Below are positions 39,108 to 63,542 of a stretch of DNA of 64,000 nt, in pieces; the stretch's first letter is position 1, and each line of letters opens with the position of its first letter. Below the pieces are notes generated by a model that did no database searches, was not told where the DNA came from, and was given only the letters and a program-made list of their open reading frames with translations. Source of the DNA: a virus; IMG/VR virus record IMGVR_UViG_3300030117_006323, positions 27,171 through 91,170 of that record. One strand, given 5' to 3'. A program made the translations under genes and the position numbers.

Positions 39108-40892
39108 TTATCGACCACGCGGTCTCCTTGCGTTCATTAACGCATTAGAGGCTTGCCCGGCAGGCCCGGGTTGAGGTCCTCTTTGTTGCATAGTCTGGAC
39201 GGGTGCTCCTGATGTCATGGTGCCTCGCGGTGGAGCGGCTGGACCACGCGGTGTGCGCATGCCGACACCTTCACCGCCGGGTTGCGAAGGAGGCATAGCA
39301 CCGGGCATCATACCGGGCATAGCACCTCTACCGGGCGGGGCACCTCTGACAGGCATTCCACCAGCAGGTCCCATTGGAGGCATTCCTCCTGCCATTGGCA
39401 TACCGGGCATCATACCGGGCATCATACCGGGCATCATACCGGGCATCATACCGGGCATCATACCCGGTTGAGCGGGTGGAGGTTGTTTGTACGTGAAGCG
39501 AATGTCTTTCTCATTCTCATCAATCAATTGTGGTTGGAAGCCAAGCATCAACATACGTTGTGCAATATTGACTTCCATCTCATCGCGTCGGAGGCGAGTA
39601 ACTTCATCCTCTTCCTCAGATGGACGCAAAGTGAGTTTCCAATCTGTAACATCCATGGAGGCTAGCAGTTTGGGGAACAAAAGGTCAGAGTAAATTTTTT
39701 GACCAAATTCAACAGCACGATTGGTAACAACCATTTGCATACCTTCGTTGTTGAGACCTCCTGATTTTCCTGTATCCATCATGAATACATTGGACACACC
39801 ATAGAAAGAAGCGATACGCATACGGATTTCATCGCGAACTGCAATGTATTGCATCTCTTCTAGAGTATCCATGAATTTGACCCAATTCACACCGCCTCGA
39901 CCTGTAGAAGATTCGATGCCAACTCTTGGAACGTAGTGCGGGTCTCTTTCCATTTTTTCATCGACAGACTTCCAGAAAGACTTCATAGATTCCAGATTGT
40001 CTGTTGTCACAGAGATGATACCTTTGGGTGTCCTTCGTTTCTGATATGCTGTGTAGATATAATTGTCCATAGCCGTGAGTGTCATGGCTTGTCTCCACAA
40101 TGTATTCACAGGTGGGCGACCATACAGTTTGGACGGGTGGTATTTTGATACGTGCATGACTTCGCCTTCGATGTAATATTGCGTTTTACCAGAACCTGCT
40201 GTATTGATATGATGTACATCATGCATTTCATTACCGCATACACTACACTTGTCATCTTGACCCGGATAAGCGACTTGGTCTCTATGCAACAAACAAACTT
40301 TGTAACGACCGCCACGTACACCACGCTTATCGGCGACAATACGCATGAATACAGGGTCTCCACGAATAATTTCTTTGATACGGTAAAAAGCAGGCTCGCT
40401 TGTTTCAGGGTCTACGAAGTATTCTTTGACAAGAATCAAGAATGCATCATCGACAATATTGAGGTCTGTTTCAATTTCACCAAGAATCTGCAAAAAATTC
40501 TGTTCCATTGAGTTGTCTTGGTTGAACAACCATTTGGGGTAAAGCAGTTGTTCTGTATCTGGGGTTCGCATGTTGGAACTCTGACAATCAGGGCATACCT
40601 CAACTTCGTGTTGAAATTCAGTACCACAATCGACGCATTTGTGATGGAACTTCTTTTCCCAAAACCAACCTCGACGGAACATTTCTTGCCGAATAGTATT
40701 CAACACTGTCCGCAAAATCAAATTTTCATTGCTTACAGCGTAAAGAGCAGGAATGGTAATACCTTGTGATAGAACAGGCTCTTGAATACCACTTGTCCAA
40801 AGTGGCATTTGTGGCGCAGGTGTCTCTCTACGTTTGAATGGCTTCGCCAATGTCGATAAAAATCGACTAATCCGACTTTCTCCTTCAGCCAT
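39108..40892 (-). CDS. Portal protein with zinc ribbons and PGMM tail
   Basis: A 594-aa protein. The ATG at 40892 overlaps the upstream stop as TAATG and has GGAGG upstream; an in-frame extension to 40913 lacks support. Portal-like features are the N-terminal clip and wing segments (GITIPALYAVSNENLILRTV), DLNIVDDAFLILVKEYF, GEVMHVSKYHPSKLYGRPPV and the long stem helix (DEIRMRIASFYGVSNVFM). Two Cys clusters are inserted: CVDCGTEFQHEVEVCPDCQ at about residues 85-105, and CSVCGNEMHDVH with a preceding Cys-x3-His near 200-225. From about 485 on, the tail is Pro-Gly-Met repeats followed by Gly/Pro/Arg-rich sequence. It would form the dodecameric DNA channel at the head vertex, next to TerL. Confidence 0.8.
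   Translation of the reverse strand: MAEGESRISRFLSTLAKPFKRRETPAPQMPLWTSGIQEPVLSQGITIPALYAVSNENLILRTVLNTIRQEMFRRGWFWEKKFHHKCVDCGTEFQHEVEVCPDCQSSNMRTPDTEQLLYPKWLFNQDNSMEQNFLQILGEIETDLNIVDDAFLILVKEYFVDPETSEPAFYRIKEIIRGDPVFMRIVADKRGVRGGRYKVCLLHRDQVAYPGQDDKCSVCGNEMHDVHHINTAGSGKTQYYIEGEVMHVSKYHPSKLYGRPPVNTLWRQAMTLTAMDNYIYTAYQKRRTPKGIISVTTDNLESMKSFWKSVDEKMERDPHYVPRVGIESSTGRGGVNWVKFMDTLEEMQYIAVRDEIRMRIASFYGVSNVFMMDTGKSGGLNNEGMQMVVTNRAVEFGQKIYSDLLFPKLLASMDVTDWKLTLRPSEEEDEVTRLRRDEMEVNIAQRMLMLGFQPQLIDENEKDIRFTYKQPPPAQPGMMPGMMPGMMPGMMPGMMPGMPMAGGMPPMGPAGGMPVRGAPPGRGAMPGMMPGAMPPSQPGGEGVGMRTPRGPAAPPRGTMTSGAPVQTMQQRGPQPGPAGQASNALMNARRPRGR
39403..39472 (-). repeat. 12-bp tandem repeat encoding PGMM
   Basis: About six near-identical tandem units of GGGCATCATACC (plus strand) lie within the portal gene and encode repeated Pro-Gly-Met-Met. 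A further partial unit occurs near 39301-39316. The unit length is a multiple of three, so copy-number change keeps the reading frame. It is a coding minisatellite, not a CRISPR array, since there are no spacers. Confidence 0.85.
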
Positions 40893-42250
40893 TAACAAAT
40901 CGCCTCCGACCACTTGTTGATTGACTCTTGGTCAACCCCCCACTCTTGCAGTAGTTCTTGACCTTTTGCAGTATCACGCCAATTTTCGTATTGGACTACG
41001 CGCCTTAATTGGGATTTGCGCTCTATATCAGCATCTAAAAATTCTAGTACGGCTTTCGCCTGTAGATTTTTCATCTGCAAATGTGGTGTGATACCAGTAA
41101 GGAGTTTTCTCATATCATCCTTAGAATAAAATTGTAGGCGATGTTGGCTTCTTTGGCCGTCTTTGTACACTTTTTGGTCTAATTGCAGTACACCACAGCC
41201 CAATGTTTTGTGGAGTTGCTCACAGTGAATCCGCCCGCGTTCTCCTGTTGCGATAAATCCGGCTCTTGGTTCACCACGTTTTGTAATCGTAATGTAACCA
41301 TCAGCATCAAGGAATCCAGCAGCATAAGGCCAAACCTGTGATTCTTTGAGGACAAGAGCATCTTGTTTCAAAAGAATGTATTCTCCTCTTCGACCACCTT
41401 TCATGATGTCAACTTCTTCTCCATAAGTATTGAGAACGCTAGCAAGGCGTCGAGAACTTAGACTCTTTAGGTGATTTTCATGCATTCCTTTCTCAAGCAT
41501 ATTATGTAGAATGTCACTTGCAGTCATAGGGCCTTTTTCACCCAATTCATCAACACTGCATTGTAACCATTCTTTTTCAATTTGGGACAAAGCGTCAGTT
41601 TGGTGTAATGTATTCCTCCACATTTTTTTGGCTTCTTTACGCATTTCCATAGCAGTTAGCCACTCTTCTTTTTGCCCAGAGTCCCATGCATCTTCTACAC
41701 TCTCCAATGTTTTGATGACGCCTGTTGCGTTTTCCCATTGCTCACATGCGCGTAATAGAGAAGAAGAACGCACTTCTCCAAAACGCCGGAAGGCCTTGAG
41801 GTTCCTATCTGACAAACCTAGATTACGCAGAGTTTCAGAGCGGTCGTGTGCCCAACCGTGCATTTTGAGAGTCTCTTCGACTTCTAACGCTTTCAACATC
41901 TGGATATTCCCAATAATTTCATCAATGTCAGTTTTCAATCCTTTGTGGTGACGCCGTGCCTTTCGTAAATCTTTGACAATATCAGCGGCACTTTTGCCTA
42001 ATTTGTGTTCAAACCACCCATCACCATTAGATGGAAAACCATGTCCCTTCTTTTTCATGGGGGCTTCTTCCTTCTTTTTTGGTTTTGAAGATTCAATTTG
42101 AATCACGATACTCATCAATCCTTTCGGCTTATCCTTGAATTTTGGGTGCTCGGCCAAGGCTTTAGTGATTGCCCTCACCATAGGGCTTTCGATGTTTTCA
42201 ATTTCTTCTGGGATGTCGTAATCATCTCCAATTAAACCCGAGCCCCACAT
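40892..42250 (-). CDS. LAGLIDADG-domain protein between TerL and portal
   Basis: A 452-aa protein. The N-terminal 280 residues are mostly helical and charged (VKDLRKARRHHKGLKTDIDE, a winged-helix-like part near MTASDILHNMLEKGMHENHL). At about 303-325 the sequence WPYAAGFLDADGYITITKRG matches the LAGLIDADG catalytic helix including the acidic residue, and the following residues (IHCEQLHKTLGCGVLQL, SQHRLQFYSKDDMRKLL) fit the rest of a single LAGLIDADG fold. It may be a domesticated homing endonuclease used in genome packaging or nicking, or a parasitic gene. It is tightly coupled to its neighbours: five nt after TerL and TAATG with the portal. Confidence 0.7.
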   Translation of the reverse strand: MWGSGLIGDDYDIPEEIENIESPMVRAITKALAEHPKFKDKPKGLMSIVIQIESSKPKKKEEAPMKKKGHGFPSNGDGWFEHKLGKSAADIVKDLRKARRHHKGLKTDIDEIIGNIQMLKALEVEETLKMHGWAHDRSETLRNLGLSDRNLKAFRRFGEVRSSSLLRACEQWENATGVIKTLESVEDAWDSGQKEEWLTAMEMRKEAKKMWRNTLHQTDALSQIEKEWLQCSVDELGEKGPMTASDILHNMLEKGMHENHLKSLSSRRLASVLNTYGEEVDIMKGGRRGEYILLKQDALVLKESQVWPYAAGFLDADGYITITKRGEPRAGFIATGERGRIHCEQLHKTLGCGVLQLDQKVYKDGQRSQHRLQFYSKDDMRKLLTGITPHLQMKNLQAKAVLEFLDADIERKSQLRRVVQYENWRDTAKGQELLQEWGVDQESINKWSEAIC

Positions 42251-42254
42251 AATA

Positions 42255-43721
42255 TCACATCACAAACCAATCAGACTTGTTGCCTGTTAATTCACCTTGG
42301 ACCCAATCGCCAAAGCCCGGGAGGAAATCATCCAATAAAACAACACTGCCCTTGAATTCTTTCGTTCCCCAATTTGCCAGAGCCAGTCCCATAGCCAAGT
42401 CATCGTGAACACCTACACTTTCAAGACGGCCTTGTTTGGTCATCCCAAATCGGTTCAACTCAGTCTCTAATTTATGAGTGAACTCTTTGCTCTTTTCATC
42501 ACCGTAAGGTGTACGAATATGACCTTGTTCAAACGCCAACAGTAAAGACATGAACAAACTTTCCTTACGCGCGCGCGTAGTCATGAATGTACGCACAGGA
42601 ATGTCCATATCGCGCAATTCAGTCTCAAACATACGCTGGAAGTTGTTACCTTCAAGTTCAATCAAATCAGGCTGAAAGCGACTATTGAGTAAGATAATGT
42701 GTCTTTTTTGTGCTTCTGAATTCAAACCTTTTTCGTGCACAGAATGAATGACTTGTTTGACGCCAGCCTCTGTGGTACGCATAATGACCATGGCTGTGTA
42801 GTCAGCGTTTTTATCGGAAGCAATCGCAGGGTCCCATCCGATGAAATGTTGCCCGAATACACCAGCACGTTCTCCTTCTTCATCGTACTCGTATTCGGCC
42901 CGTTCCAATAGCCGAAGTTCAGGGTCACGAGCGGCTTCCAGAATATCCATTGGGAACATACTCGCTACGTCATGAATCGGCTCACAGAGATATTCACGAG
43001 CGAACTGAATAGCAGGCATAGACATACGCCGTTGCATCAAAGACTCTTCATCCCAACGACCGGGCCATAAAGCGACACCTTCAGAATCCATAGCAGGGAA
43101 AGTCTCAACAATGAAAGCATCTTTGCTTTCTAACTCAGTGTACAAGTCATTGTAACTGAAAGGTGTTCCGACCATCATCAAACGACCTGTGTGGTGCAGA
43201 ACTGGGAGAAGAACTGAATAAAACCAATCAGCAGTACGTGCCAACTCTGTCGCTGTTGACCCCCATAGAATGTCATCACAGACTACAACATCAGGGTGGA
43301 AACCACGAGTTGCACCACCAACCGACTTTGCCATCAAACGACTGCCGTTGGTGAATTCAAAATACGATTTAGCCCAAGGCATACCTGTAGGCTTGAGATG
43401 ATTCAAGACTGGGTTTGTATCTACGTGACTTCGTATCATACGCATGTGTTCCAAAGTCTGTTCTAGAGAGTGTGAGAAAATCATGATGTGCGTGTTAGGA
43501 GTAAATGCGGCTAGCCACAAAGCATAGGACATAAACAAAGTTGACTTGCCGTGGTCACGAGCCGCTTTTACAACGTAGTATCGGTGATTGGTTAGGCGGT
43601 CAGTCCACTGTTCGTGGTGATGGTTGAAATCATATCCTAGAATATCTGTGAAAAAAAACTCAAATGACTTTGCCGCCATTTCGCGGTCCATCTCAATAAT
43701 GAGTTCATTGACATCGCTCAT
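42255..43721 (-). CDS. terL: Terminase large subunit
   Basis: A 488-aa protein, a normal length for TerL. The ATPase domain has Walker A ARDHGKS at residues 54-60 and Walker B VVVCDD at 145-150, followed by the coupling segment VGTPFSYND. The nuclease domain has GWDPA at 295-299, LIELEGNN near 353-360 and HDDLAMGLALA from 439, which together give the three acidic metal-binding positions of the RNase H-like fold. It drives DNA packaging through the portal and cuts the concatemer. All catalytic residues that I can identify are intact. Confidence 0.93.
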   Translation of the reverse strand: MSDVNELIIEMDREMAAKSFEFFFTDILGYDFNHHHEQWTDRLTNHRYYVVKAARDHGKSTLFMSYALWLAAFTPNTHIMIFSHSLEQTLEHMRMIRSHVDTNPVLNHLKPTGMPWAKSYFEFTNGSRLMAKSVGGATRGFHPDVVVCDDILWGSTATELARTADWFYSVLLPVLHHTGRLMMVGTPFSYNDLYTELESKDAFIVETFPAMDSEGVALWPGRWDEESLMQRRMSMPAIQFAREYLCEPIHDVASMFPMDILEAARDPELRLLERAEYEYDEEGERAGVFGQHFIGWDPAIASDKNADYTAMVIMRTTEAGVKQVIHSVHEKGLNSEAQKRHIILLNSRFQPDLIELEGNNFQRMFETELRDMDIPVRTFMTTRARKESLFMSLLLAFEQGHIRTPYGDEKSKEFTHKLETELNRFGMTKQGRLESVGVHDDLAMGLALANWGTKEFKGSVVLLDDFLPGFGDWVQGELTGNKSDWFVM

Positions 43722-43725
43722 GTCA

Positions 43726-44799
43726 TCAAACCCCTTGCAGCATGCGCCATGCGAGGTCCATCGGTTCTGCTTTTATGTCGTACTCCTCGACCATGTTACC
43801 AAATCCTGCTGGCGTGAGTGGGCCTTGGTCACCACCTAACGTGCTGCCGGATGCAATACCTCCTGATTGTGGGTCTAAGGTATTCATGGGGTGTTCCACC
43901 TCGTCTGGTAAAGAATTTAGTTTTTGTTCATTTTGTGCCGCATCTGTGACAGCAGTAGCCGTTGGGTCTGTTCCGTGGCTAGCATCCACATTTGTTGGTG
44001 GATTTATCATTTGCTGATTCATCAACAGTTGCTGTACAATTGCCGCCTGCATGTCGCGATTTTGCGCTAGATGAGAGTCGTACCCACTGGCAGTCAACAT
44101 ATCTCCTATCTGTGATGTGTTTTGCTCTGCTTCTGGTGGTGCTGCTGCTGCCTCTTGTTGTGCTTTTTCATGCTCGGCCATTGATTGGTCATAACCACGC
44201 TGTGCATCTTGGATTCTATCAGCATAACCATGCGCAACTCTTGAGCCTAAATTAGTCAAGGCTCTACCTTTCCCATAACCTGCCAAAGTGGCATCCATGG
44301 CACCACCGAAAGACCCACTTTGCTGTCCTTCATTAAATCCTAAAGCGGCCAATGGCAGAGATGCTACCATGCTACCTACATTGGCTGCGTGCCCAACTCC
44401 TCTAGCGGCCAATCCAGCCAAAGAAGCAGGAGTAGCGTCTACTTTACTTTGCAAACCCTGAATGGCATGATTCCAGCCTCTACCTAATGTTCCTTTTGGA
44501 TTCCGAATATGAAGACTTTGGGGTTGAAACATAGCACCCATGCCTCGTGACCATGTGGAATCACCACCTTGTTGTACTTGGTTAGCAGCAAAGCGCCCAA
44601 GTTTAGAACCAAAAGAATCCGTGCGATTTTGTGGTTTTTGCCGATTTCCTCCCATAGCCACTTGATATTGGTCTCCAAAAAATATCTGACCACCGGGACC
44701 AACTACAGCGCCACTGCCGGGTGTTAAAGAAGATTGGTGTTCAGACCCAACAACTGGCTCTTTCAAAATGCGCCAAGCAGTATCTAATGGGTCACTCAT
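43726..44799 (-). CDS. Internal virion protein candidate with LLK motif at both ends
   Basis: A 357-aa protein starting with ATGA overlap and GGTGGT upstream. It begins MSDPLDTAWRILKEP and ends with AEPMDLAWRMLQGV, so the recurring motif sits at both termini. Between them is a Gly/Ala-rich stretch with moderate hydrophobicity (ASLAGLAARGVGHAANVGSM, VASLPLAALGFNEG) that could interact with membranes, then a Gln/Ala-rich part. The gene lies directly before TerL. I propose an internal head protein, possibly membrane-active on ejection. No known family is recognised. Confidence 0.55.
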   Translation of the reverse strand: MSDPLDTAWRILKEPVVGSEHQSSLTPGSGAVVGPGGQIFFGDQYQVAMGGNRQKPQNRTDSFGSKLGRFAANQVQQGGDSTWSRGMGAMFQPQSLHIRNPKGTLGRGWNHAIQGLQSKVDATPASLAGLAARGVGHAANVGSMVASLPLAALGFNEGQQSGSFGGAMDATLAGYGKGRALTNLGSRVAHGYADRIQDAQRGYDQSMAEHEKAQQEAAAAPPEAEQNTSQIGDMLTASGYDSHLAQNRDMQAAIVQQLLMNQQMINPPTNVDASHGTDPTATAVTDAAQNEQKLNSLPDEVEHPMNTLDPQSGGIASGSTLGGDQGPLTPAGFGNMVEEYDIKAEPMDLAWRMLQGV

Positions 44800-46962: not shown

Positions 46963-49206
46963 TCAATGCGCTCCTACATGAGCAGAAGGCTCCATACCCC
47001 ATGTTCTAGCGTCATCATGGGGCGGTGTTTCAGTACCTCCTTCATTTTTTGTCGTTTTCCTCGGGCTGTTGGCTGGATAATCTGGCTTATCTTCTCCTGC
47101 CCCAGCCGTGTCTTTGGCCTTTTTCATTCGACCACGCTTGTCTAAAGCCTCTCGGAGTTCTCGTAGCAAGCGTTTGATGTCTTGAGCATGGGCAAAACCA
47201 TACGAGCCGGGGCCCATGATATTCTTCTGAATATCACTTCCTTCAGAAGAATCCTCTGACATCTGAATTGAAGAAGAGGGGAGCCCCACCTGCGCAGGCT
47301 GGGGGAGAGGCGGCGCAGATGGGACTGTTGGGGGTGTCATAGGACTGAAGCCTGTGGGTGGTTTCAGTCTTGGCATTCTAGGTCTAGCCAGTCGGCGTAG
47401 AGATGGAATATTTGCAGCAGCGGCTTGTCCGGGTAATGTTCCACCAAGACGCCCGCCACCAGTAGGACCGGGGTATTGAGTGCGTTCACCAAACAAAGCG
47501 TGAGGCGAATAAGGTAAAGGCACGTTACCCTGAAGTCGTCGTCGCAATTGTTGACCGTAGTATTGTCTGTATGATGCAGGGAATTGTCTCATTGGTTGCT
47601 TAGTTTGCACACCAAGGTGAGACATGTGCACTGCCAGAGGCGCACCCATCAGACCACCTTTGATACTGTGGACTCGATGACGAGGTGACAAAGTCCGGCT
47701 ACGAGCCTTGGCTCTTCGGGATGTACCAGTCCATGGACGGCGTCCACCGGGTGGCCCATGGAACTTTGGTTGGGCCCACTTTTTTGCGTGTTCTTTTCGG
47801 CGTTGAGTAGTTGTTCCGGCTGAACCAATTTCACCAGCGGCCATTGCTCCTTCGCCTTTATCCTTTTTCTTAGACTTCAACAATGACCAAGCAAGGTCCA
47901 TTGGTTCACTTAATTTCAAATTCCCTTCTTCGTCAAACATCTCTTCTTGGAATGCTTGCTGTTCATGGAGATTCGCATCAATAGGTGGCATCTCATATTC
48001 GCCTTTTGGATTCTTTAATCCGTGCTGTGTGTAGTAAGTATCAGAAATTTCTTCTACTCGGTTATCCCAAGTCCCTTGTTCTTTTAGTGCTGCATAAATA
48101 GATTCGCTGGTATAAGGACCATGACCATTAACCCACGCCATTGATTTATCAGGCGTGAGCCAAGTGATGATTGGTTGTTCTGGATTATCATATTTTAACA
48201 ATTCAGACCAAGCGTAATCCATTGGCTCGCCTGTCTGAATATTGTCATCACCAGCATTATCCCATTCGTGAACAGGGACACCTTGTTGCCACAGGTCGTA
48301 ATGTTTTCTGTATGATGGCGGTGCCCACATACCGTCTTGGTGGTATGTATGAATACCTTGTTCTTCAAGTAAGTCTTCATATTTATCTCGTTGTTCATCG
48401 GTTATGTAATTCCAAAAATCAGGGTTATCCCAATCAGTAATTGCCATAGTATCCTCATACCAATGATTATGCAACATTTCAGGTGACATTTCATTCATTA
48501 TGGAAGCATAGTATTCATCATTCTTTTCATTTGCATATTGGATTTGTTCTACTGCTTGTTCCAGCGTTGGGTTGAATAATTCAGGGTGAGATTCCGGTGT
48601 TATTGGTACGAAATCATCATCTTCTTCATCATCCCAATATGGTGATTCACCCGGCCCACCGGGTTGATACATGAACCAATCAGAACTTCCCGGCGTCACA
48701 TCGGCAGGTGCTTTCAGTAATTCCGACCAAGCCTCTTCTAAGAATTGAGAACGATACACACCCTGCGGTCCAAGTAGAGGGGGAATACCACCCATTGCAG
48801 AACCAGTTCCAGTCTTAGCGCCAACCGCTTGGTCAAGTTCAGCACCACGAGAACCACTTGCTCCTGTCAATTGTGACAGTTCTGCCTGCATTTCATCTTT
48901 AGGAGGAGCCTCGCCATCTCCTTCTTGCGTTACTTCTTGACCGGGGGCTAATTCTTCGCCGGGTAAAACAGATTGCATGACATCCTTGTTCTTAATTTTG
49001 ATATGATGGAGGCGTTGGCGATTTTTTGTTTCCTCTTTCTCGCGCTTATCTTTTTCATTCTTAGCAGCGGCAATTTCGGGGTCACCGTAGCCATGAGCAT
49101 AACCAGTCTCATCATCCTCATAACCGAACAGGCGTGTGGATTCTGAACGAGGGTTGTACATACGGGTATCAGACCCGCGACCCATACCACCTGTCCCGCT
49201 AGGCAT
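46963..49206 (-). CDS. Large modular protein with three LLK motifs (747 aa)
   Basis: The ATG follows the upstream stop directly, with GGAG close by. Three motif copies divide the protein: FLEEAWSELLK near residue 155, GEPMDYAWSELLK near 326 and SEPMDLAWSLLKSKKK near 433. The middle segments are Trp/Asp/Tyr-rich (DWDNPDFWNYITDEQRDKYE). The part after the third motif is basic and Pro/Gly/Arg-rich (RRPWTGTSRRAKARSRTL), suggesting nucleic-acid contact. The last 110 residues include RLLRELREALDKRGRMKKAK. It may be an internal head protein or polyprotein; no known domain is recognised. Confidence 0.55.
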   Translation of the reverse strand: MPSGTGGMGRGSDTRMYNPRSESTRLFGYEDDETGYAHGYGDPEIAAAKNEKDKREKEETKNRQRLHHIKIKNKDVMQSVLPGEELAPGQEVTQEGDGEAPPKDEMQAELSQLTGASGSRGAELDQAVGAKTGTGSAMGGIPPLLGPQGVYRSQFLEEAWSELLKAPADVTPGSSDWFMYQPGGPGESPYWDDEEDDDFVPITPESHPELFNPTLEQAVEQIQYANEKNDEYYASIMNEMSPEMLHNHWYEDTMAITDWDNPDFWNYITDEQRDKYEDLLEEQGIHTYHQDGMWAPPSYRKHYDLWQQGVPVHEWDNAGDDNIQTGEPMDYAWSELLKYDNPEQPIITWLTPDKSMAWVNGHGPYTSESIYAALKEQGTWDNRVEEISDTYYTQHGLKNPKGEYEMPPIDANLHEQQAFQEEMFDEEGNLKLSEPMDLAWSLLKSKKKDKGEGAMAAGEIGSAGTTTQRRKEHAKKWAQPKFHGPPGGRRPWTGTSRRAKARSRTLSPRHRVHSIKGGLMGAPLAVHMSHLGVQTKQPMRQFPASYRQYYGQQLRRRLQGNVPLPYSPHALFGERTQYPGPTGGGRLGGTLPGQAAAANIPSLRRLARPRMPRLKPPTGFSPMTPPTVPSAPPLPQPAQVGLPSSSIQMSEDSSEGSDIQKNIMGPGSYGFAHAQDIKRLLRELREALDKRGRMKKAKDTAGAGEDKPDYPANSPRKTTKNEGGTETPPHDDARTWGMEPSAHVGAH

Positions 49207-52698: not shown

Positions 52699-53184
52699 TT
52701 ACATCTGCGGGAGTTGAGGTATGCCCATTCCTTGAAGTGATTCAAGAGTGACAGGTGGAGCGCCTCTTACACTTGGGTCCATCGCCGCCGGGCCCCAATG
52801 GGGTTGTGTTGCCCCCGGTTCTCCAAAATAACTTTGTTCTGCACCGTGAAAAACCGGGCCGGTGTGTGTTTCTGCTTGATTATACTTTGGGTTTTCAGGT
52901 TTCAGCCTTCCAGTTAAATCATAATCTTGCGGCATACGTTGGACAGGATTTTCTGTAGGGTGTTGTGCATAAGTCCCTTGTTCGTATTGCATAATTCTAG
53001 GCTGTTTAATTCCTTGCCTTTCCATCATTCCTGTAATGGCAGGATGTAATGCTCCTTCAGGCATAAATCGGCTTGACCTTTCCACCCAATTCGGTCCCCG
53101 AGTCTCGACTAGTCTTGGCCTAACCAATTGCTGCTGTGGGTCTGCTTTTAGTAGTGCCCAAGCGTATTCAAAAGCGCTATTCAT
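52699..53184 (-). CDS. Small LLK-motif protein (161 aa)
   Basis: ATG 53184 puts the motif at the extreme N-terminus (MNSAFEYAWALLKADPQQQ); a GTG three codons earlier is possible. The remainder is Pro/Gln/Gly-rich with no predicted fold (GALHPAITGMMERQGIKQPR, GEPGATQPHWGPAAMDPS). This looks like a cargo-type tag followed by a disordered body. It overlaps the preceding unit by a few nt. I propose an internal virion protein. Confidence 0.55.
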   Translation of the reverse strand: MNSAFEYAWALLKADPQQQLVRPRLVETRGPNWVERSSRFMPEGALHPAITGMMERQGIKQPRIMQYEQGTYAQHPTENPVQRMPQDYDLTGRLKPENPKYNQAETHTGPVFHGAEQSYFGEPGATQPHWGPAAMDPSVRGAPPVTLESLQGMGIPQLPQM

Positions 53185-53185
53185 A

Positions 53186-53512
53186 TTACTCACTGTCCAT
53201 CATCTCTGGTCGCTTAACACCAATTTTACCTGCGGGCACTCCTTGTGCCATAATATCTGTAGGAGCAGCCTCGGCTTCTGGGCCAGCGGGAGGCATCGGA
53301 GGCATAGCCTCCATACCACGACTTCCAGACATAGCAGCCGTCAATTCTTGCAAAAGACCTTCTGCTTGCTCCCGAAGTGCGGGGTCAGGGCTCTCAATAT
53401 TGGCATTTACGAAAGAGCGCAAACTCTGTAATTCAGCCGGAGTGTACTCTTTTCCAGCAGGAGAAACAGGTCGTGCTTTGAGCAAAGACCACGCCAAATC
53501 GAATGGGCCCAT
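53186..53512 (-). CDS. Small LLK-motif protein (108 aa)
   Basis: Begins MGPFDLAWSLLKARPVSP, a clean N-terminal copy of the motif. A helical segment follows (YTPAELQSLRSFVNANIESP, LREQAEGLLQELTAAM), then a Pro/Met/Ala-rich tail. It lies just after the GTPase gene, so the motif block and the membrane cassette are translated from the same unit. No further domain is recognised. Confidence 0.6.
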   Translation of the reverse strand: MGPFDLAWSLLKARPVSPAGKEYTPAELQSLRSFVNANIESPDPALREQAEGLLQELTAAMSGSRGMEAMPPMPPAGPEAEAAPTDIMAQGVPAGKIGVKRPEMMDSE

Positions 53513-55068: not shown

Positions 55069-57909
55069 TCACTGAAGGATGTTTAAAGCCTCGTCTAAGG
55101 GCATTTCTGTCGGCGGTAGAACGCCTACTTGGCTACCGGCCATCCATTGCCAATCAGAACCATGGTCTTTCTCTGCTCTTTCCCTACCTTGCTTTTCGGC
55201 TGTTCTTGCTTGTGAGGCTGTGGGCTGAAATGCACTATGCATTACAGCCACTGGGGCACCATAAGCCCATGCAGCCGCTGTGCTTTTTTCTGGATTTGCT
55301 GTCGCATGCCCTAACCTTTCTTCTGCTGTTTGGCGAATTCGTTCATTGAAAGCATCGTTCAAAAGTTCAATTCTTTGTGCCTCTTGTTCTTGGTGTTCTT
55401 CTTGTTCTTTTTCCCGGCCACTTTGACGCATTGCCATTAATTTTTCTGATAAAGATGGGCCCATACCCAAATCCATCATTTGGTGGTCTGTTTGGGTTAA
55501 GTATGGAATAGCGAGACCAGATGCTCTGTCAAAATGATATTCATCTAAATTAGCCGCTTTATCTCGTTCAGCGAACCATTGTGGTGTAAATCTTTGTCGA
55601 GCGGCCAGTTCATACGCTATACTATTTTCACCACCATATTTTTCTGGGTCAATAAGAGGCTTTTGGGGATATTTACGTCTGAAGCGTTGTCTCAATTGGT
55701 CCAATATCGTGCCAGCAGGAAGAATAATACTGCCACCAAGACCCAATTGTTCAAGCAAACTCACAGGGTCTATTTTCAATAATTCCCAAGCATGGTCAAT
55801 TGGTGTTTCAGATTTACCTACTTGAGTAACTTCATCCCCGGGATACAAAGGTGGTCTGCCTTGTGCCATTCTTTGTTGTTCTTGATGAGCAAGTAAATCC
55901 CAGCCTGTTAAATTAGCAATACGCTCTTCTTCTTTCAATCTTGCTTGCATCGCCGCTTGCTGTTGGTCGTTGTGCACATCCCACGGCTCCATGGCCAATT
56001 CAGGGAATCTTTGTCTTTCTTCTTCCCACAATTTCATCTGCCTGTCTCTGAAAAATTGTGTCGGGTCCTCTTGCATCAAATCCAAAAATCCTTGATTGCT
56101 AATTTCTCGGGCTTGCTGTTCTCTGCCTGCTCCTTGCTCTAATCTTCGCAATAATGAAAATACTTTGGCTCTTGTTTCTGGGTCCAAATCTTCTCGGTGA
56201 CCACCTTCTTCACCGGGAACTCTCAAAATGCGTCTTTGTTCAGCAGGGTCCTCATAGAGTTCTTCAGGCCCACCCATCGCTAAAGTGTGGCCTAACATAT
56301 CCATCAAAGGTTGTGCATAATGACGAATATAGCGATTTCTGATTTCATCAGGTTTTTCCATTGCATTGGCCATATTTCTAAATCTTCTCGCAGCAGCAGT
56401 GTGACCAGAGTCTTGTAATAATTCTGCTTCTGCTCTCAAATCTTCTACACTCACTGACTCTTGATGTGTGTAAGGACGATGTGGCTCTTCGTCTTCTTCA
56501 TCTTCTTTAAGCAAACGGAAAGCAAGGTCCATTGGTTCACCTGTTTGCAGCCATCCTTCCCCAGATGTTAATGGTATGGGGTTTTCTCCCATCCGACTGT
56601 CAGCCATTGCGTCAGTCCAATTAGTCACATAGTTTATTGCAGGTTGAGGGGCTGTCAGATATTGCCTTGGTATATCCCCGTAATGCGCAAATGTATGTGC
56701 ATTCATGACTGGGTCCCATAGCGGTTCAACTGGGTTACCTTGTTCAGCCATATCTCGGAAGAATTGTTCTCTGATGCCAACCATTAGTGGTTTTCTTTGT
56801 GTCCCTTGGTTTGGATTTTCAAAACCTGCTTCTTCTTGCTTTTTACGTTGGGCCATCGCGGCTTCTCGGGCCCCATAATTTGCATAACGCTCGGCTGTCG
56901 AGAGGTCCCCTGTCCCAAACACAGCAGGTGGAATATCTTCATTAACGGTCTCCACAATATCTCCGGGCCTAACCTTTTGCCGTCCTGTTGCGATTTGAAA
57001 TTCACCGGGTGTCAGTCCTTCTGCTTCAATTTGTGGAGCACGAGTATGCCTTGTTCCGTGATAAGCAACGACATCACCTTGTGAAGATGGCCAAAATGGC
57101 ATAAACTCGCCAAGTTCTTGCTGATTCCTCAGCGGCCCTGTTGTATGAGTGCCTGTATAATCCAAGTCTACTTTGAGCAACCGCATGGCGATGTCCATAG
57201 GTTCGCTTGCACGAAAATCAGAAGATGACATTTCTTCATCGAGATTCTGTGGCTCTAGATTACCCGGATTCATATCCGACATGAGTTCATACAGTCGATT
57301 CATGATTTCCTCTTCTGACATTTGTTTGATACGCGCCTCAAGAGTATCTACATCTGGATGTGGACCTACATCTGCTTTAGGATTAGGGACACTGGTTGGT
57401 GCACCGGGGGCCCCTTCAAAGAGAGACCAATCTGGATTCTGTGTATCCTCGTGATAAGCCTCTCTTAATGCTGGGGCCTCATTTTCTTGCAACTTTTGCC
57501 TTCGCTCTAATTCGTGTTGCAGCATAATTACTTCCGCTGTTTCGGGTTGAATGCCAGAAGGAGTCCTTTCGTATAAATCAGCATCAGGGCTGAAAGGATG
57601 GTCATGTCCAAAAGGATGCATGGCATATTCTGGTGATGGCCCAGTAGAGACTCCTTCTGTGACTCTTCTGTTTCTTTCTATGATGAAGGGATTAGCGTCT
57701 TGGGGGAATAGGTTAGCGAACAGATTGGCGTGCTGAATAAGTTCTGCTTCCGTCATGTGCGGAATTTCATCAATCGCCGGAAGTCCAAGGTTTGTAAAAT
57801 GGTCTTGAAGTTCTTGAGGGTCGCTAAAATCAACAGGAGGTGGTACATCTATAGTCGGTGGGCCTTGATATTCATCATCATCTTGTTTGATGATTCTGAC
57901 GATGCCCAT
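55069..57909 (-). CDS. Modular LLK-motif protein with ADP-ribosyltransferase-like domain (946 aa)
   Basis: The ATG has GAGG 7 nt upstream. Motif copies at residues 235-246 (SEPMDIAMRLLK), 457-468 (GEPMDLAFRLLK), 700-712 (SETPIDHAWELLK) and a weak one at the C-terminus (MPLDEALNILQ) divide it into four modules. The second module has the layout of a PARP-like ADP-ribosyltransferase fold: VVAYHGTRHTRAPQIEAEGL from residue 281, then FGTGDLSTAERYANYG near 330, and YGDIPRQYLTAPQ near 420. His of YHGT and Tyr of ERYA fit the first two positions of an H-Y-[EDQ] triad; the third is unclear. The other modules are helical and Glu/Gln-rich. By analogy with T4 Alt, it may be packaged and injected to modify host proteins. 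Confidence 0.65.
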   Translation of the reverse strand: MGIVRIIKQDDDEYQGPPTIDVPPPVDFSDPQELQDHFTNLGLPAIDEIPHMTEAELIQHANLFANLFPQDANPFIIERNRRVTEGVSTGPSPEYAMHPFGHDHPFSPDADLYERTPSGIQPETAEVIMLQHELERRQKLQENEAPALREAYHEDTQNPDWSLFEGAPGAPTSVPNPKADVGPHPDVDTLEARIKQMSEEEIMNRLYELMSDMNPGNLEPQNLDEEMSSSDFRASEPMDIAMRLLKVDLDYTGTHTTGPLRNQQELGEFMPFWPSSQGDVVAYHGTRHTRAPQIEAEGLTPGEFQIATGRQKVRPGDIVETVNEDIPPAVFGTGDLSTAERYANYGAREAAMAQRKKQEEAGFENPNQGTQRKPLMVGIREQFFRDMAEQGNPVEPLWDPVMNAHTFAHYGDIPRQYLTAPQPAINYVTNWTDAMADSRMGENPIPLTSGEGWLQTGEPMDLAFRLLKEDEEDEEPHRPYTHQESVSVEDLRAEAELLQDSGHTAAARRFRNMANAMEKPDEIRNRYIRHYAQPLMDMLGHTLAMGGPEELYEDPAEQRRILRVPGEEGGHREDLDPETRAKVFSLLRRLEQGAGREQQAREISNQGFLDLMQEDPTQFFRDRQMKLWEEERQRFPELAMEPWDVHNDQQQAAMQARLKEEERIANLTGWDLLAHQEQQRMAQGRPPLYPGDEVTQVGKSETPIDHAWELLKIDPVSLLEQLGLGGSIILPAGTILDQLRQRFRRKYPQKPLIDPEKYGGENSIAYELAARQRFTPQWFAERDKAANLDEYHFDRASGLAIPYLTQTDHQMMDLGMGPSLSEKLMAMRQSGREKEQEEHQEQEAQRIELLNDAFNERIRQTAEERLGHATANPEKSTAAAWAYGAPVAVMHSAFQPTASQARTAEKQGRERAEKDHGSDWQWMAGSQVGVLPPTEMPLDEALNILQ

Positions 57910-57996: not shown

Positions 57997-58575
57997 ATGA
58001 GCGTCCAGCATGGAAGCATTCTTGTTGTTCCTTCAAAGGAACATATCAGGAAAAACCCTGCATTCAAGAAAGCGCACCCTGCATTACTCGCTGTTTTACC
58101 TATGCTAATATCAGCAGCGGGTAAAGTAGTGGGCGGAGCCATCGGTTCGCCTATGAAAATGGGCAAAAAAATCATGGGAATGAATCAACAATCTGCAAGT
58201 GGAACACAGAACGTATCACAAATGGCAAATGCAGCGGCTGATGCAGATGACCAAATAGTACAACAAACACGACAAGCAGCAACACAACACGCACAAGTCC
58301 AAACAGGTGAATCAATGGATTTGGCTTGGCGTTTATTGAAACGCGCTACTTCTCCTGAAGCATTGCGACACAAAAGAGAATACGATACACAGTACGAATC
58401 TACACCTGAACGTGTAAATTATCGTGAAGAACTCAATGCTGAACGAAGAAAAAGAGGTATCATGGGTCAAGGGGGACCTGATATGAGTCACACTAAGCGA
58501 GGAGTTCTTGTCGCAGAAAGCCCACACGCAAATCGTGCTCGTCATTTCAAAGAGCGTGGGACTCTAAAACCGTAA
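57997..58575 (+). CDS. Plus-strand LLK-motif protein (192 aa)
   Basis: This plus-strand gene is read divergently from the 946-aa gene. The N-terminal half has a hydrophobic helix (ALLAVLPMLISAAGKVVGGA) with a Gly/Lys/Met-rich continuation, so it may be membrane-active. It is followed by an Ala/Gln-rich stretch and the motif GESMDLAWRLLKRATSP at about residues 105-121. The C-terminus is basic (NYREELNAERRKRGIMG, ANRARHFKERG). A GAGGGT site lies close before the ATG. The motif in a gene with opposite orientation shows that it is not merely the product of a local tandem duplication. Confidence 0.65.
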   Translation: MSVQHGSILVVPSKEHIRKNPAFKKAHPALLAVLPMLISAAGKVVGGAIGSPMKMGKKIMGMNQQSASGTQNVSQMANAAADADDQIVQQTRQAATQHAQVQTGESMDLAWRLLKRATSPEALRHKREYDTQYESTPERVNYREELNAERRKRGIMGQGGPDMSHTKRGVLVAESPHANRARHFKERGTLKP

Positions 58576-58908: not shown

Positions 58909-59070
58909 TTAGTCATCCCGCCCATAGCGATGACCTTCGTACATATCGTTCACAAAGTCCTCAACCGAAAATTCCAATTCGATTTCGCCGAAACTTCGGA
59001 GAGCAATCCAAGTGTTCAAGCAAAAAATTCCTATCAAACATACAAGCGCAGCAAATACAACCCACATCAT
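58909..59070 (-). CDS. Small single-pass membrane protein (53 aa)
   Basis: The ATG overlaps the stop of the HMG-CoA lyase-like gene as ATGA, so the two are translationally coupled. One N-terminal TM helix (WVVFAALVCLIGIFCLNTW) is followed by an acidic cytoplasmic or exterior part (FGEIELEFSVEDFVNDMYEG) and a basic-acidic end. It is shorter than usual gene-calling cut-offs. Function unknown; it may be a small regulator, lysis or virion membrane protein. Confidence 0.55.
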   Translation of the reverse strand: MMWVVFAALVCLIGIFCLNTWIALRSFGEIELEFSVEDFVNDMYEGHRYGRDD

Positions 59071-60007: not shown

Positions 60008-61456
60008 TCAGAGTCGCCATTCTGTCGCAGAAGGATTAGGGTCGGTGGACGTACCCATGACAGCGTTATAGGCCGGTTGTGCCGTCGGCGGCGTTGGTAG
60101 AGCGTTGGCCTCGGCGTAGGCTGCACGAATGGCATCGGCTTCGGCTTGAGCAGCGGCACGAGTGCGCTCCATTTGGAGAGCGACATCGTAAGCGTTACGA
60201 TAATCTGCTGGACGTTGTATTGGATTAGTTGTCATATCATGACCTGTTAAATCACCTACATTAAATGCACTTTGCCGTAATTTCATGTCAGCAAAGGCGC
60301 TCAAAGGTGCCGGGCGTGTTACACCCGGCATATTTTGTGGTATTTTAACAGCGACATCGCCCCATGGCATAGGTAAAAATCGACCGTACTTGCTTTCATA
60401 GCCTTTAGCCTGACCTGTTTTTGTGTCAAATTGGGTTTGCTTTGATTTTGGTTCCCAACCCGGTCTAACATTTGGTGACAACCGCCCGGGAGCCACATTA
60501 GGTGGCATCCAAGCAGCACCCTCGACCATAGGCCGCAAACTACCAAACTCTGGTTGTGAAAGGTCTCTTGTGTAAGCAAGCGGTGCGAATCTCATGGTTC
60601 TGTGAGAATCAGACATCTCGCCGATACCCTCATGGTCATCAGCCAATTCATCCATTCTGTTTGCCCACAAGTCGCGACCTCGCTTATCCTTTGGCTCAGA
60701 CATAGTTACACCGCGTGGTAAATTTTTACTGTATTTCATGTGAAATGGCCCAGACATTTCATTTCGGGCATGTGACATTAATGAAGTATTTTCTGGCAAT
60801 GCATTTATCACCGAATTCAATAATTTTTCATACATACCTTGTCTTTGGAATTGAGGGTAAGTTGTACCTTGTTCAATATACACTGTGCTCGGTTTTTTGT
60901 CGCTACCGAGCCTTCTTCGTCCGGGTTGGGGTGGCACCACATCAAAATCAGGGTCTGAACTTCCACTAGTCATGACAGAAGATACAGGGCCGTGTTCCGG
61001 GTGCACTAATCTATACAAGCCCTTATCATGCGTCAAATACAGATTATGTGGGTCAGTGATTTTAATTGGCAGTTTTGTGGTTCCACCTCTTTTTGCCCAT
61101 TTACGATGTCGCGGATTTTCTGGCGTTGTCTGCATTAAACCAGATGAAGTATCGAAATCACCTAACGACATTTGCCTCTTGAGCAATCGCCAAGCGAGGT
61201 TCATTGGTTCACTACGAGTAAAGCCTGTTTCTTCGTTGAAAGGTGTGTCCTTGAATGATGGCTTCCCCAGAAGGGTCTGTGTGGCTACTCCTGTCAAAGG
61301 TCGCTTTAATCTCAATGGATGCACCGCACCTGCTATGCCATGTTCAATGGCCTCTTTCCACTCCGGTGAAAGTTCATCTTCATCTATGTCTTGACCGGGA
61401 TGGAGCATTCTATCTTCATCCTTGAGCAATCGCATAGCGAGGTCCATTGGTTCCAT
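60008..61456 (-). CDS. LLK-motif protein with GNAT-like domain (482 aa)
   Basis: It begins MEPMDLAMRLLKDED and has a second copy, SEPMNLAWRLLKRQ, at residues 82-93. Between about 140 and 260 the sequence resembles a GNAT acyltransferase: a strand pair (GLYRLVHPEHGPVSSVMTSG), then TVYIEQGTTYPQFQRQGMYEKLL. In the last of these, F-Q-R-Q-G-M-Y fits the acetyl-CoA-binding R/Q-x-x-G-x-G/A loop and following helix. SLMSHARNEMSGPFHMKYSK fits the late GNAT part. The second Gly of the loop is replaced by Tyr. The C-terminus is Ala/Pro-rich. I propose a packaged effector that acetylates a host target; the enzyme call is by eye only. Confidence 0.55.
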   Translation of the reverse strand: MEPMDLAMRLLKDEDRMLHPGQDIDEDELSPEWKEAIEHGIAGAVHPLRLKRPLTGVATQTLLGKPSFKDTPFNEETGFTRSEPMNLAWRLLKRQMSLGDFDTSSGLMQTTPENPRHRKWAKRGGTTKLPIKITDPHNLYLTHDKGLYRLVHPEHGPVSSVMTSGSSDPDFDVVPPQPGRRRLGSDKKPSTVYIEQGTTYPQFQRQGMYEKLLNSVINALPENTSLMSHARNEMSGPFHMKYSKNLPRGVTMSEPKDKRGRDLWANRMDELADDHEGIGEMSDSHRTMRFAPLAYTRDLSQPEFGSLRPMVEGAAWMPPNVAPGRLSPNVRPGWEPKSKQTQFDTKTGQAKGYESKYGRFLPMPWGDVAVKIPQNMPGVTRPAPLSAFADMKLRQSAFNVGDLTGHDMTTNPIQRPADYRNAYDVALQMERTRAAAQAEADAIRAAYAEANALPTPPTAQPAYNAVMGTSTDPNPSATEWRL

Positions 61457-61457
61457 A

Positions 61458-62882
61458 TTACCACTTGACCTTGTCGGCCCAATATGCAGCGCTCATTGGT
61501 CCTCGTTTGATATTTTTCTGATGTCGGGCTTTGAACGATGCACGCTTTTTTGCTCTCTTACCTTTTGGATTATCTTCTGTAACGGTGTCTGCACCTTGTT
61601 CACCGAACCGAATTGTTTTGACCTTACCGCCTGACCTTGCTACAACCACATGTGATTTCTTTGGATGATTTGGTGTGCGCTTTGGTTTGTTGTAACCACT
61701 TACTCCCGCTGCCTTTAGGCGCGGGTCAGGTTTCTTCTCCTTGAGTAACCCCCAAGCAAGGTCCATGGGTTCGCTTTTCATCTGGTATCCACAAGAAGGA
61801 CAAGTTGATAAATTTGTATCTACAGCAGAGCCGCAACCCATGCACATAGTTTGAGTCGGTTGAGTTGTTTGCTGTTTAGGTGCCCCAATAATCCCTAAAG
61901 CAGCAAGTTGGTCAATTTGGGCTTGCACTTCTGGGCTGACTTGAGCAGCCATAAGAGAACGCTGTCTTTCTTCTTCCTCTTGTTGTAAGCGCTGTCTTTC
62001 TTCTGCGTCTTTTGCTTCTTGCTCTAATCGTAGTTTTCTTTCAGGGCTTGTTTCGACAGTTGAAAAACTCCCTAAAGATTCAAGCAATTTCCGCGCAAGT
62101 TGTTCGTAACGAGGCATTCCGCGCTGTGGCCAATTTTTTTTGGGTACTTTAATTCCCAATGATGCCATCGTATCAGGTGTAATAGTGGCTATATCTGCTT
62201 CGTCAATTATTTGGTCTCGGTAAGCGCGTGTTGATATGTCGGGAATATCTGTGGCTTCTTCTGCTGCAAATTGATTACCCATGTCAAATAATCCGGGTAA
62301 CTCATGATGAATACCTCGATTCTCTAACGCTTGAGGCTTTAGGCTATTCTGTGGCATTACTTTGATAGTAGGCCGAGTCCCCTGACCTTTACCTGTCGTA
62401 CTATCCATTCCGCCAACTACACTTTTGACACCAATTTTACCAGTTTCATCTCTTACTAGAACTGGAGTGTATGTGTGCGCTGTTCTTGTTTGCCCACTGT
62501 CATCTTTGTATTCTTGAGGCTCATCTGTGTGTAAAGCCTCCATAATCATGGAAGGATATTCATTAGGGTTTTCTCCCATAGACAAAGCATCGGATAATTC
62601 AGGATGATTACGTAAAGTCAATTCAGCCATAGCCAAAGCCAATTCTTCAGGGGTATTGTTTTCAAACCCTTTAGGCATATCTTGTTTAGGCGCAAATCTT
62701 TCTTCCAGCCGTTTTTCATAATGCCCTCTGTCTGTGGCTTTTGGGTCAACGAATTCAGTGTGCCCCCATCTCATTTCGTCTAGAATATTTTTCAGAGCAT
62801 CATGATATTTCGGGTCACGAAATTGTGCCGGAAAATGATACGCTTTGAGAAGTAAGTCCCAACTTACTTGCAAAGGACTCAA
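61458..62882 (-). CDS. LLK-motif protein with zinc ribbon (474 aa)
   Basis: It starts with TTG right after the upstream stop, with GGTGGTGA before it. The N-terminus is a divergent motif (MSPLQVSWDLLLKAYHF). The middle contains a charged coiled coil (LRLEQEAKDAEERQRLQQEE). A zinc ribbon (CMGCGSAVDTNLSTCPSCGY) at about 350-370 is immediately followed by KSEPMDLAWGLLKEKKPDPR. The C-terminal 70 residues (KVKTIRFGEQGAD, RASFKARHQKN, YWADKVKW) resemble a small protein family I recall from marine phages. It is likely an internal or minor virion protein that combines several small modules. Confidence 0.6.
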   Translation of the reverse strand: MSPLQVSWDLLLKAYHFPAQFRDPKYHDALKNILDEMRWGHTEFVDPKATDRGHYEKRLEERFAPKQDMPKGFENNTPEELALAMAELTLRNHPELSDALSMGENPNEYPSMIMEALHTDEPQEYKDDSGQTRTAHTYTPVLVRDETGKIGVKSVVGGMDSTTGKGQGTRPTIKVMPQNSLKPQALENRGIHHELPGLFDMGNQFAAEEATDIPDISTRAYRDQIIDEADIATITPDTMASLGIKVPKKNWPQRGMPRYEQLARKLLESLGSFSTVETSPERKLRLEQEAKDAEERQRLQQEEEERQRSLMAAQVSPEVQAQIDQLAALGIIGAPKQQTTQPTQTMCMGCGSAVDTNLSTCPSCGYQMKSEPMDLAWGLLKEKKPDPRLKAAGVSGYNKPKRTPNHPKKSHVVVARSGGKVKTIRFGEQGADTVTEDNPKGKRAKKRASFKARHQKNIKRGPMSAAYWADKVKW

Positions 62883-63194
62883 TTACTCACCACCGGCTGG
62901 GGCCCGTGGTGCTACAACTGGTACTGGATTGTAAAGCGCATGTGTCAATGTGTTTGGTCCACCCGGTGCATCTTCAGCCCGTGGAGCAATAAATGGCTTC
63001 TTTACATCTGGTAATTTTGGCTTTTGGTTTTGGGGTGGGGGCATTTCAGTTGGCTCATCTGGAACTACTGGCCCTAGCCCTCTTTCAGCAGGTGACATTT
63101 GAGCGCCACTCTGAAGATATGAAAAAGCATCCAATTCAGGTCGGTAACGAGCAGAGTCTTTCAAAATCGTCCAAGCGATGTCAAAAGGCTGCAA
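62883..63194 (-). CDS. Small LLK-motif protein (103 aa)
   Basis: TTG at 63194 lies 5 nt after GAGGTG, the same arrangement as at the giant adhesin gene. It begins MQPFDIAWTILKDSARYR. The rest is Pro/Ala/Gly-rich and probably disordered (TEMPPPQNQKPKLPDVKKPF). Only the motif is conserved with other proteins here. Confidence 0.6.
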   Translation of the reverse strand: MQPFDIAWTILKDSARYRPELDAFSYLQSGAQMSPAERGLGPVVPDEPTEMPPPQNQKPKLPDVKKPFIAPRAEDAPGGPNTLTHALYNPVPVVAPRAPAGGE

Positions 63195-63203
63195 AATTAC
63201 ACC

Positions 63204-63542
63204 TCAAACTGGGGGGCGACCTTTCGCTGCTCTCCGAGCCATGAATTCATCTAGTTTCCTTTGATTCCTTACATCTTGAGCCATACGGTTCTCTTGAGTG
63301 TCCATGGCTTGCTCAGAGCGTGCTCTGTCTTTTTGCGAAGTACGTACATCCGGGCTTCCACGTTGCCTTTCACCTATGTCTTCGTAAGGCAGAGGAGGCT
63401 GAGGCTCATCTTCCACAGGCATGAAAACCGACGCATCAGGGTCCATTCCCAATTGCCGACCAGCCTCCATTTCGGCTATTTCTGCTGGGGTTGGTTGCCA
63501 ATTTTTCAATAGCGTCCAAGCAACGTCGATTGGAGCGCGCAT
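63204..63542 (-). CDS. Small LLK-motif protein, first gene of the block (112 aa)
   Basis: It begins MRAPIDVAWTLLKNWQPTPA. The ATG has no ribosome site but lies 24 nt after a TATA-like box, so it is probably leaderless and first in the operon. An acidic Pro-rich middle is followed by a charged, Arg/Gln-rich helix (TQENRMAQDVRNQRKLDEFM). No other domain is recognised. Confidence 0.6.
   Translation of the reverse strand: MRAPIDVAWTLLKNWQPTPAEIAEMEAGRQLGMDPDASVFMPVEDEPQPPLPYEDIGERQRGSPDVRTSQKDRARSEQAMDTQENRMAQDVRNQRKLDEFMARRAAKGRPPV

What the first reader, a model, noticed from the sequence alone, without database searches (positions are those of the whole stretch)
56540..57210. ADP-ribosyltransferase-like effector flanked by targeting tags
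One module of the 946-aa protein has YHGT, an Ala-Glu-Arg-Tyr-Ala segment and a C-terminal IPRQYLT strand in the order seen in PARP-like/Alt-like ADP-ribosyltransferases. It is bounded by tag copies on both sides. T4 Alt is a head-packaged, injected ADP-ribosyltransferase acting on RNA polymerase; this would be an independent archaeal-virus counterpart.
Basis: partly seen in the sequence, partly recalled or inferred. Interest (0 to 1): 0.78.

Follow-up and report, generated by a model that had tools for sequence, protein, structure and literature searches.

The report
Tagged ADP-ribosyltransferase-fold effector in magrovirus
A virus of ocean archaea carries, inside a long protein built of modules separated by copies of one short peptide tag, a domain with the fold of enzymes that use NAD to modify other molecules; the tag marks proteins made with the virus head and may load them into the particle, but neither packaging nor activity has been shown.

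Summary
The 946-aa ORF (55069-57909, -) has a module bounded by tags at 57172-57201 and 56506-56535, and the YHGT, AERYA and IPRQYLT strings are all present. Alone the module matches nothing in Pfam or the PDB. With 19 relatives recovered from other viral contigs it is clearly ART superfamily: AlphaFold2 pLDDT 78.5, pTM 0.75; the first 41 PDB fold matches are ART-superfamily enzymes or toxins, led by RNA 2'-phosphotransferase Tpt1/KptA; a KptA profile comparison scores 36-40 against at most 17 for shuffles. The His of YHGT is invariant. 'Alt-like' is wrong at family level: T4 Alt is R-S-E, AERYA lies in a helix, the strand-2 aromatic is Phe, and strand 5 has no acid. HVTV-1, a relative, already has a different-class ART in its head block. 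The tag is the newer element: 14 clear copies in 10 window proteins (N-terminal, internal or C-terminal), 66 copies in five related records, all beside the terminase/head genes and none near the DNA polymerase. Best model: a magrovirus (Poseidoniales) effector loaded by the tag into the head and delivered to modify a host target. Fold about 0.9; delivery and activity about 0.5 each; target unknown.

The parts
55069..57909 (-). 946-aa multi-module protein carrying the ART-like module
   Evidence: no PDB, PHROG or significant Pfam match as a whole
57172..57201 (-). tag copy 1, (SE)PMDIAMRLLK, upstream of the ART-like module
   Evidence: PWM score 32.8
57076..57117 (-). shared prelude ELGEFMPFWPSSQG, conserved in relatives as (RQT)ELGEFHPDFPSSYGPV
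56626..57117 (-). ART-superfamily-like domain (residues 265-428), with prelude
   Evidence: AlphaFold2 pLDDT 78.5, pTM 0.75; fold search; profile comparison
57052..57063 (-). YHGT, strand 1; His invariant in 20 relatives
56911..56922 (-). VFGT, strand 2; Phe where H-Y-[E/D/Q] enzymes have Tyr (Y/F/H/W/S in relatives)
56881..56895 (-). AERYA, in a predicted helix (module residues 72-96), not a catalytic strand
56770..56778 (-). GIR at the end of strand 3; Gly and Arg invariant in the 20 relatives
56653..56673 (-). IPRQYLT, last conserved segment
56506..56535 (-). tag copy 2, (GE)PMDLAFRLLK, downstream of the module
   Evidence: 31.8
55774..55803 (-). tag copy 3, PIDHAWELLK
   Evidence: 28.2
55072..55101 (-). 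weak C-terminal tag, PLDEALNILQ-stop
   Evidence: 12.3
60008..61456 (-). 482-aa protein with N-terminal and internal tags
   Evidence: no Pfam match
61458..62882 (-). 474-aa protein with an internal tag at 61740-61769 followed by a basic DUF5754-like C-terminus
   Evidence: (PF19058 E 0.21, below cut-off)
62883..63194 (-). 103-aa protein, N-terminal tag
63204..63542 (-). 112-aa protein, N-terminal tag
57997..58575 (+). 192-aa protein with internal tag ESMDLAWRLLK, the only one on the + strand
53186..53512 (-). 108-aa protein, N-terminal tag
52699..53193 (-). 164-aa protein, N-terminal tag AFEYAWALLK
46963..49206 (-). 747-aa protein, internal tag at 47875-47904 and a weak one at 48196-48225
43726..44799 (-). 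357-aa protein beside TerL, tagged at both the N- and the C-terminus
   Evidence: 44761-44790 and 43735-43764
42255..43721 (-). terminase large subunit (context)
   Evidence: phrog_38 E 4e-65
39108..40913 (-). portal (context)
   Evidence: phrog_18178 E 4.4e-60
30537..31904 (-). head maturation protease (context; candidate processing enzyme)
   Evidence: phrog_23555 E 1e-14
29392..30531 (-). major capsid protein (context)

Best explanation
The segment is an effector module with the ADP-ribosyltransferase (ART) fold, carried in a late multi-module protein of a Poseidoniales-type magrovirus. The repeated amphipathic peptide (consensus [GS]E-P-M-D-L-A-W-R-L-L-K) is most likely a virion-loading tag: it recruits otherwise unrelated proteins made with the head genes into the prohead, perhaps with cleavage by the maturation protease releasing single modules, so that they enter the new host with the DNA. 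There the ART-like module would bind NAD through its strand-1 His and modify, or hydrolyse NAD to disturb, a host component early in infection. Shown: the tag's distribution, the conserved core, the predicted fold, the late-gene context. Inferred: tag function, packaging, cleavage, injection, catalysis. Unknown: the target.
For: Fold: AlphaFold2 pLDDT 78.5, pTM 0.75; the first 18 PDB fold matches are all Tpt1/KptA (Foldseek prob 0.99-1.00) and the first 41 are all ART superfamily by their descriptions and my knowledge; an earlier model gave ART matches in its first 22 rows. Sequence: of the 12 PDB profile matches 9 are RNA 2'-phosphotransferases, including the best (E 0.005); hhalign against KptA E 1e-5 to 4e-5, score 36-40, against at most 17.2 for 60 column-shuffled KptA alignments and 15.5 reversed. 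Invariant His, Gly, Gly, Arg in 20 relatives. Tag: 66 copies in five 91-110 kb records, 63 on the TerL strand, all in the block flanking TerL/portal/MCP, none near PolB; at the N-terminus, inside, or at the C-terminus of unrelated proteins. By regex 30 of 42 ART-prelude modules directly follow a tag, about 34 by eye. Tagged or adjoining modules include HD (PF13328 1.8e-5) and GNAT-like (PF00583 0.008) domains. Host: an MCP 64% identical lies in a single-cell assembly of Ca. Poseidoniales.
Against: Model TM-scores are only about 0.40 and no PDB match reaches E 1e-3. Strand 2 has Phe and strand 5 no acidic residue, so catalysis may be lost or different. No virion proteomics exists for this virus. 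No tag of this form is found in the 41-kb head region of HVTV-1, so no studied virion supports the tag's role. T4's targeting sequence is N-terminal, whereas this tag can be anywhere.
Confidence: 0.5

Rival explanations
1. The module has the ART fold but is catalytically dead, acting as a binding domain (NAD, ADP-ribose or nucleic acid) or decoy.
For: Phe at the strand-2 position and no acid in strand 5 of the window copy; a sister group with the same prelude has lost the strand-1 His in several members (QPT for HPT).
Against: The His is invariant in all 20 members of the window's own group, with Tyr, Gly and Thr beside it at least 90% conserved. Tpt1/KptA and some PARPs work without the third-motif acid (general knowledge).
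Confidence: 0.25
2. A Tpt1/KptA-type RNA-end repair enzyme that removes 2'-phosphates or ADP-ribosylates nucleic-acid ends.
For: KptA is the closest solved fold and the best profile match.
Against: The whole N-terminal KptA lobe (RHxP, KxRF, QGHS) is missing and the HVHLS strand is absent; only the first ART motif aligns well. KptA is called absent or rare in archaeal viruses (PMC9503650).
Confidence: 0.1
3. Tagged proteins are internal scaffold or core structural proteins that stay in the capsid; the tag is an assembly contact and nothing is injected.
For: Tags are in the late head block only; many tagged proteins are small, low-complexity and without enzyme signatures.
Against: Some modules between tags are of enzyme type (ART, HD, GNAT) and strongly divergent, which fits effectors better than scaffold.
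Confidence: 0.2
4. The tag is a cleavage signal for the head maturation protease that splits polyproteins, not a targeting signal.
For: Internal tags have E at -1 in 60 of 82 and G or S at -2 in 67 of 82; N-terminal ones do not. A protease gene lies in the head block.
Against: Most tagged proteins carry a single tag at the extreme N-terminus, where cleavage would release nothing useful unless the tag first does something else; Pro follows the Glu.
Confidence: 0.2

Closest known systems
Tpt1/KptA RNA 2'-phosphotransferase (PF01885)
   Same: strand-1 YHGT, following helix and G-L/I-x-P turn; best fold and profile match
   Different: no N-terminal lobe, no HVHLS strand, below the Pfam cut-off; set in a tagged viral multi-module protein
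T4 Alt
   Same: ART fold; Alt is head-packaged and injected (PMC5512222), which the tag suggests but does not show here
   Different: Alt is R-S-E clade; here strand 1 has His, with neither the R, the S nor the E motif. T4's targeting sequence is N-terminal
Polyvalent proteins with H-Y-D ART domains (Iyer et al. 2017, PMC5512222)
   Same: long multi-domain proteins of portal/terminase viruses combining ART and other enzyme modules, His in strand 1
   Different: no strand-5 Asp, no match to a Pfam ART model; modules are separated by one repeated tag, in an archaeal virus
HVTV-1 gp115 (Zeta toxin + PF03496 ART)
   Same: related archaeal tailed virus (MCP 34% identical), ART domain in a giant head-block protein
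   Different: different ART class (ADPrib_exo_Tox), no tag of this form in the fetched 41 kb
T4 capsid targeting sequence (CTS) of internal proteins
   Same: one short sequence shared by otherwise diverse, conflict-related proteins (PMC3012670)
   Different: different sequence, not restricted to the N-terminus, tandem copies between modules; function here inferred only

Membership tests
ART superfamily | split-sheet ART fold | tested here: met
   predicted model, first 41 PDB fold matches ART; TM only about 0.4
ART superfamily | motif I His (or Arg) in strand 1 | tested here: met
   His284, invariant in 20 relatives
ART superfamily | motif II Tyr/Ser/His in strand 2 | tested here: inconclusive
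   Phe331 in the window; Tyr, Phe, His, Trp or Ser in relatives
ART superfamily | motif III E/D/Q in strand 5 (absent in some active members) | tested here: not met
   strand 140-145 reads AHTFAH
ART superfamily | NAD binding or turnover | not testable with these tools
   needs protein
Tpt1/KptA | N-terminal RNA-binding lobe with RH and R residues | tested here: not met
   absent from the module
Tpt1/KptA | PF01885 above cut-off | tested here: not met
   only 2 of 20 members match, best E 0.068
T4 Alt/ModA/ModB (R-S-E) | R, S and E active site | tested here: not met
   strand 1 His, no S or E motif (clade definition PMC5512222)
T4 Alt | present in virion and injected | not testable with these tools
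   no proteomics
Polyvalent proteins / Tox-ART-HYD2 | multi-domain protein of a portal/terminase virus | tested here: met
   tag-separated modules; portal, terminase
Polyvalent proteins / Tox-ART-HYD2 | H-Y-D active site | tested here: not met
   H-F-none in the window copy
Capsid targeting sequence-like tag | shared by diverse proteins of the head/late block | tested here: met
   66 copies in five records, none near PolB
Capsid targeting sequence-like tag | directs proteins into the head, removed by the head protease | not testable with these tools
   needs virions
Magrovirales | MCP, TerL, portal, PolB of the magrovirus/Druskaviridae lineage, Poseidoniales host | tested here: inconclusive
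   MCP 64% to a contig in a Poseidoniales single-cell assembly, 34% to HVTV-1, PolB present, HMGL gene; no reference magrovirus was aligned

The most novel reading that the evidence does not exclude
Magroviruses use a position-independent peptide tag to load strings of effector modules, including a divergent ART, a SpoT-like HD and GNAT domains, into the virion: a general protein-delivery system of abundant marine archaeal viruses, analogous to but not derived from T4's targeting sequence, with an atypical (His, aromatic, no acid) ART chemistry.
Probability: 0.4. Interest if true: 0.82.

Novelty: new variant of a known kind. Interest (0 to 1): 0.62.

Why it matters
Head-packaged effectors are known from T4 and inferred for polyvalent-protein phages, but for the uncultured viruses of Poseidoniales, among the most abundant ocean archaea, no delivered effector has been described in the papers searched. 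A tag readable by eye would let any magrovirus genome be scanned for its candidate virion cargo, and gives a direct test (virion proteomics, tag fusion) of how archaeal viruses act on a cell at entry.

Tried and rejected
Single-sequence searches of Pfam, PHROGs, PDB, IMG/VR and annotated phages with the module or its protein found nothing, so only the family profile is informative. Search of the cellular genome collection (84,980 species) with the family: none. A7, a sister group with the same prelude, does not match KptA (score 15); its ART nature stays open, and its link to A5 is mostly the prelude (core-to-core E 0.003). Tag-like motifs in HVTV-1: none of the same form. The MCP N-terminus SELLKADAP was considered as a cleavage-site parallel to the tag's LLKA; suggestive only. 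Third-position variability of tag DNA was partly circular because the search pattern fixed residues; not used. Literature searches found no report of this tag or of an ART in Poseidoniales viruses.

Full report
OBSERVATION. The 946-aa ORF at 55069-57909 (-) exists. Four tag copies are found in it: 57172-57201, 56506-56535, 55774-55803 and a weak C-terminal one at 55072-55101. YHGT, AERYA and IPRQYLT are all in the module between the first two. Module numbering below starts at E1 = 57117 (residue 265 of the protein).

WHAT THE VIRUS IS. The window is bases 27171-91170 of a 91,170-base virus record with terminase, portal, head maturation protease and MCP and a family B DNA polymerase outside the window. 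At least 598 related MCPs are in IMG/VR. The closest annotated relatives are HVTV-1 and HCTV-5 (Druskaviridae, 33-34%), and an MCP 64% identical lies on a 106-kb contig, with terminase, portal and protease beside it, in a single-cell assembly titled Candidatus Poseidoniales. An HMGL-like gene at 59067-59930 matches what is reported for Aoguangviridae, order Magrovirales (PMC10768690). I take it to be a magrovirus; no reference magrovirus was aligned.

THE MODULE. Alone it matches nothing. Searching the related records and IMG/VR with a two-sequence and then a six-sequence alignment gave a family that shares the prelude (RQT)ELGEFHPDFPSSYGPV and then diverges; 42 distinct modules were read, 30 of them directly after a tag by regex and about 34 by eye. 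Twenty sequences, the window's included, form the YHGT group (alignment A5). In A5 the His of YHGT, a Gly after the first helix, and the G and R of GVR/GIR are invariant.

FOLD. AlphaFold2 with A5 gives pLDDT 78.5 and pTM 0.75: strand 16-22 with His20, helix 24-33, strand 66-69, helix 72-96, strand 111-116, helix 117-125, strands 131-135 and 140-145. The first 18 PDB fold matches are Tpt1/KptA (prob 0.99-1.00, E 0.0023-0.04, TM about 0.4) and the first 41 are ART superfamily. Profile search of the PDB: 9 of 12 matches are RNA 2'-phosphotransferases, best E 0.005; the other three are ribosomal protein eL13 at E 0.6 or worse. Against an alignment of seven KptA proteins, hhalign gives E 1e-5 and, rerun locally, 4e-5, score 36.4; 60 column-shuffled KptA alignments reach at most 17.2. 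Fold rows of bacterial toxins are mentioned only as members of the superfamily.

ACTIVE SITE. The strand-2 position is Phe67 (Tyr, Phe, His, Trp or Ser in relatives), followed two residues later by Thr; strand 140-145 reads AHTFAH, without an acid. So this is a His-type domain lacking the third-motif acid, as KptA and some PARPs also do (general knowledge). T4 Alt has R, S and E (PMC5512222), so it is not Alt-like in family terms.

THE TAG. A matrix built from 188 tags finds 14 copies above 20 bits in the record, all inside the window, in 10 proteins (the matrix includes the window's own copies). Five records of 91-110 kb hold 66 copies, 63 on the TerL strand and all in the block next to TerL, portal and MCP; none near PolB. 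Tags occur at the N-terminus of small proteins, between modules, and at the C-terminus; the 357-aa protein next to TerL has one at each end. Internal copies are preceded by [GS]E, N-terminal ones are not. In the Poseidoniales single-cell contig one weak N-terminal copy was found (AFNRAWDVIK). HVTV-1's 41-kb head region and a 10-kb E. coli stretch gave none above 20 bits.

HOW IT MOST LIKELY WORKS. Late genes, a shared tag on unrelated proteins, and enzyme-type modules (ART here; HD after two ART-prelude modules in L013; GNAT in L015) point to virion cargo delivered at entry. T4 offers the model: its internal proteins are a diverse set with only a conserved targeting sequence (PMC3012670), and head-packaged ARTs are inferred to be widespread in phages (PMC9503650). 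Packaging, cleavage, injection, NAD use and target are all inferences. RNA polymerase as target has no support here.

NOVELTY. Archaeal-virus ARTs are not new: HVTV-1 gp115 has Zeta toxin plus PF03496 (PMC8651126). What appears new, within the papers searched, is this ART family and above all the position-independent tag.

Noticed in passing
L013:10954-12891 (-): 646-aa tagged protein with two ART-prelude modules followed by an HD domain (PF13328, E 1.8e-5), SpoT/Mesh1-like: a possible nucleotide-signal hydrolase as virion cargo.
   Followed up: partly
window 59067-59930 (-): HMGL-like gene (PF00682, E 3.5e-26) inside the block of tagged genes; itself untagged. Reported as an auxiliary gene of Aoguangviridae (PMC10768690).
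   Followed up: no
window 61458-62882; L105 and L107 C-termini: Basic C-terminal domain (EKKPDPRLKAAGVSGYNKPKRTPNHPKKSH...AAYWADKVKW) weakly like DUF5754 (E 0.21), nearly identical behind tags in different viruses.
   Followed up: no
window 1761-18806 (-): A single 5681-aa ORF; probable tail or fibre protein, not examined.
   Followed up: no
window 31948-37797 (-): 1949-aa protein between portal and head protease, where HVTV-1 has gp113-gp115 including the Zeta-ART protein; only a weak Pfam match (PF21974, 8.6e-5, below cut-off).
   Followed up: partly
L144, L126, L148, L165, L169, L185 and others (alignment A7): Sister group with the same tag and prelude but a different core (GNWFxP, GVRMP, EAxVxQxIPPERLV); the prelude stays almost fixed while the domain behind it changes.
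   Followed up: partly
L215: 106-kb viral contig in a Ca. Poseidoniales single-cell assembly (AG-422-I20), host evidence for this MCP lineage.
   Followed up: partly
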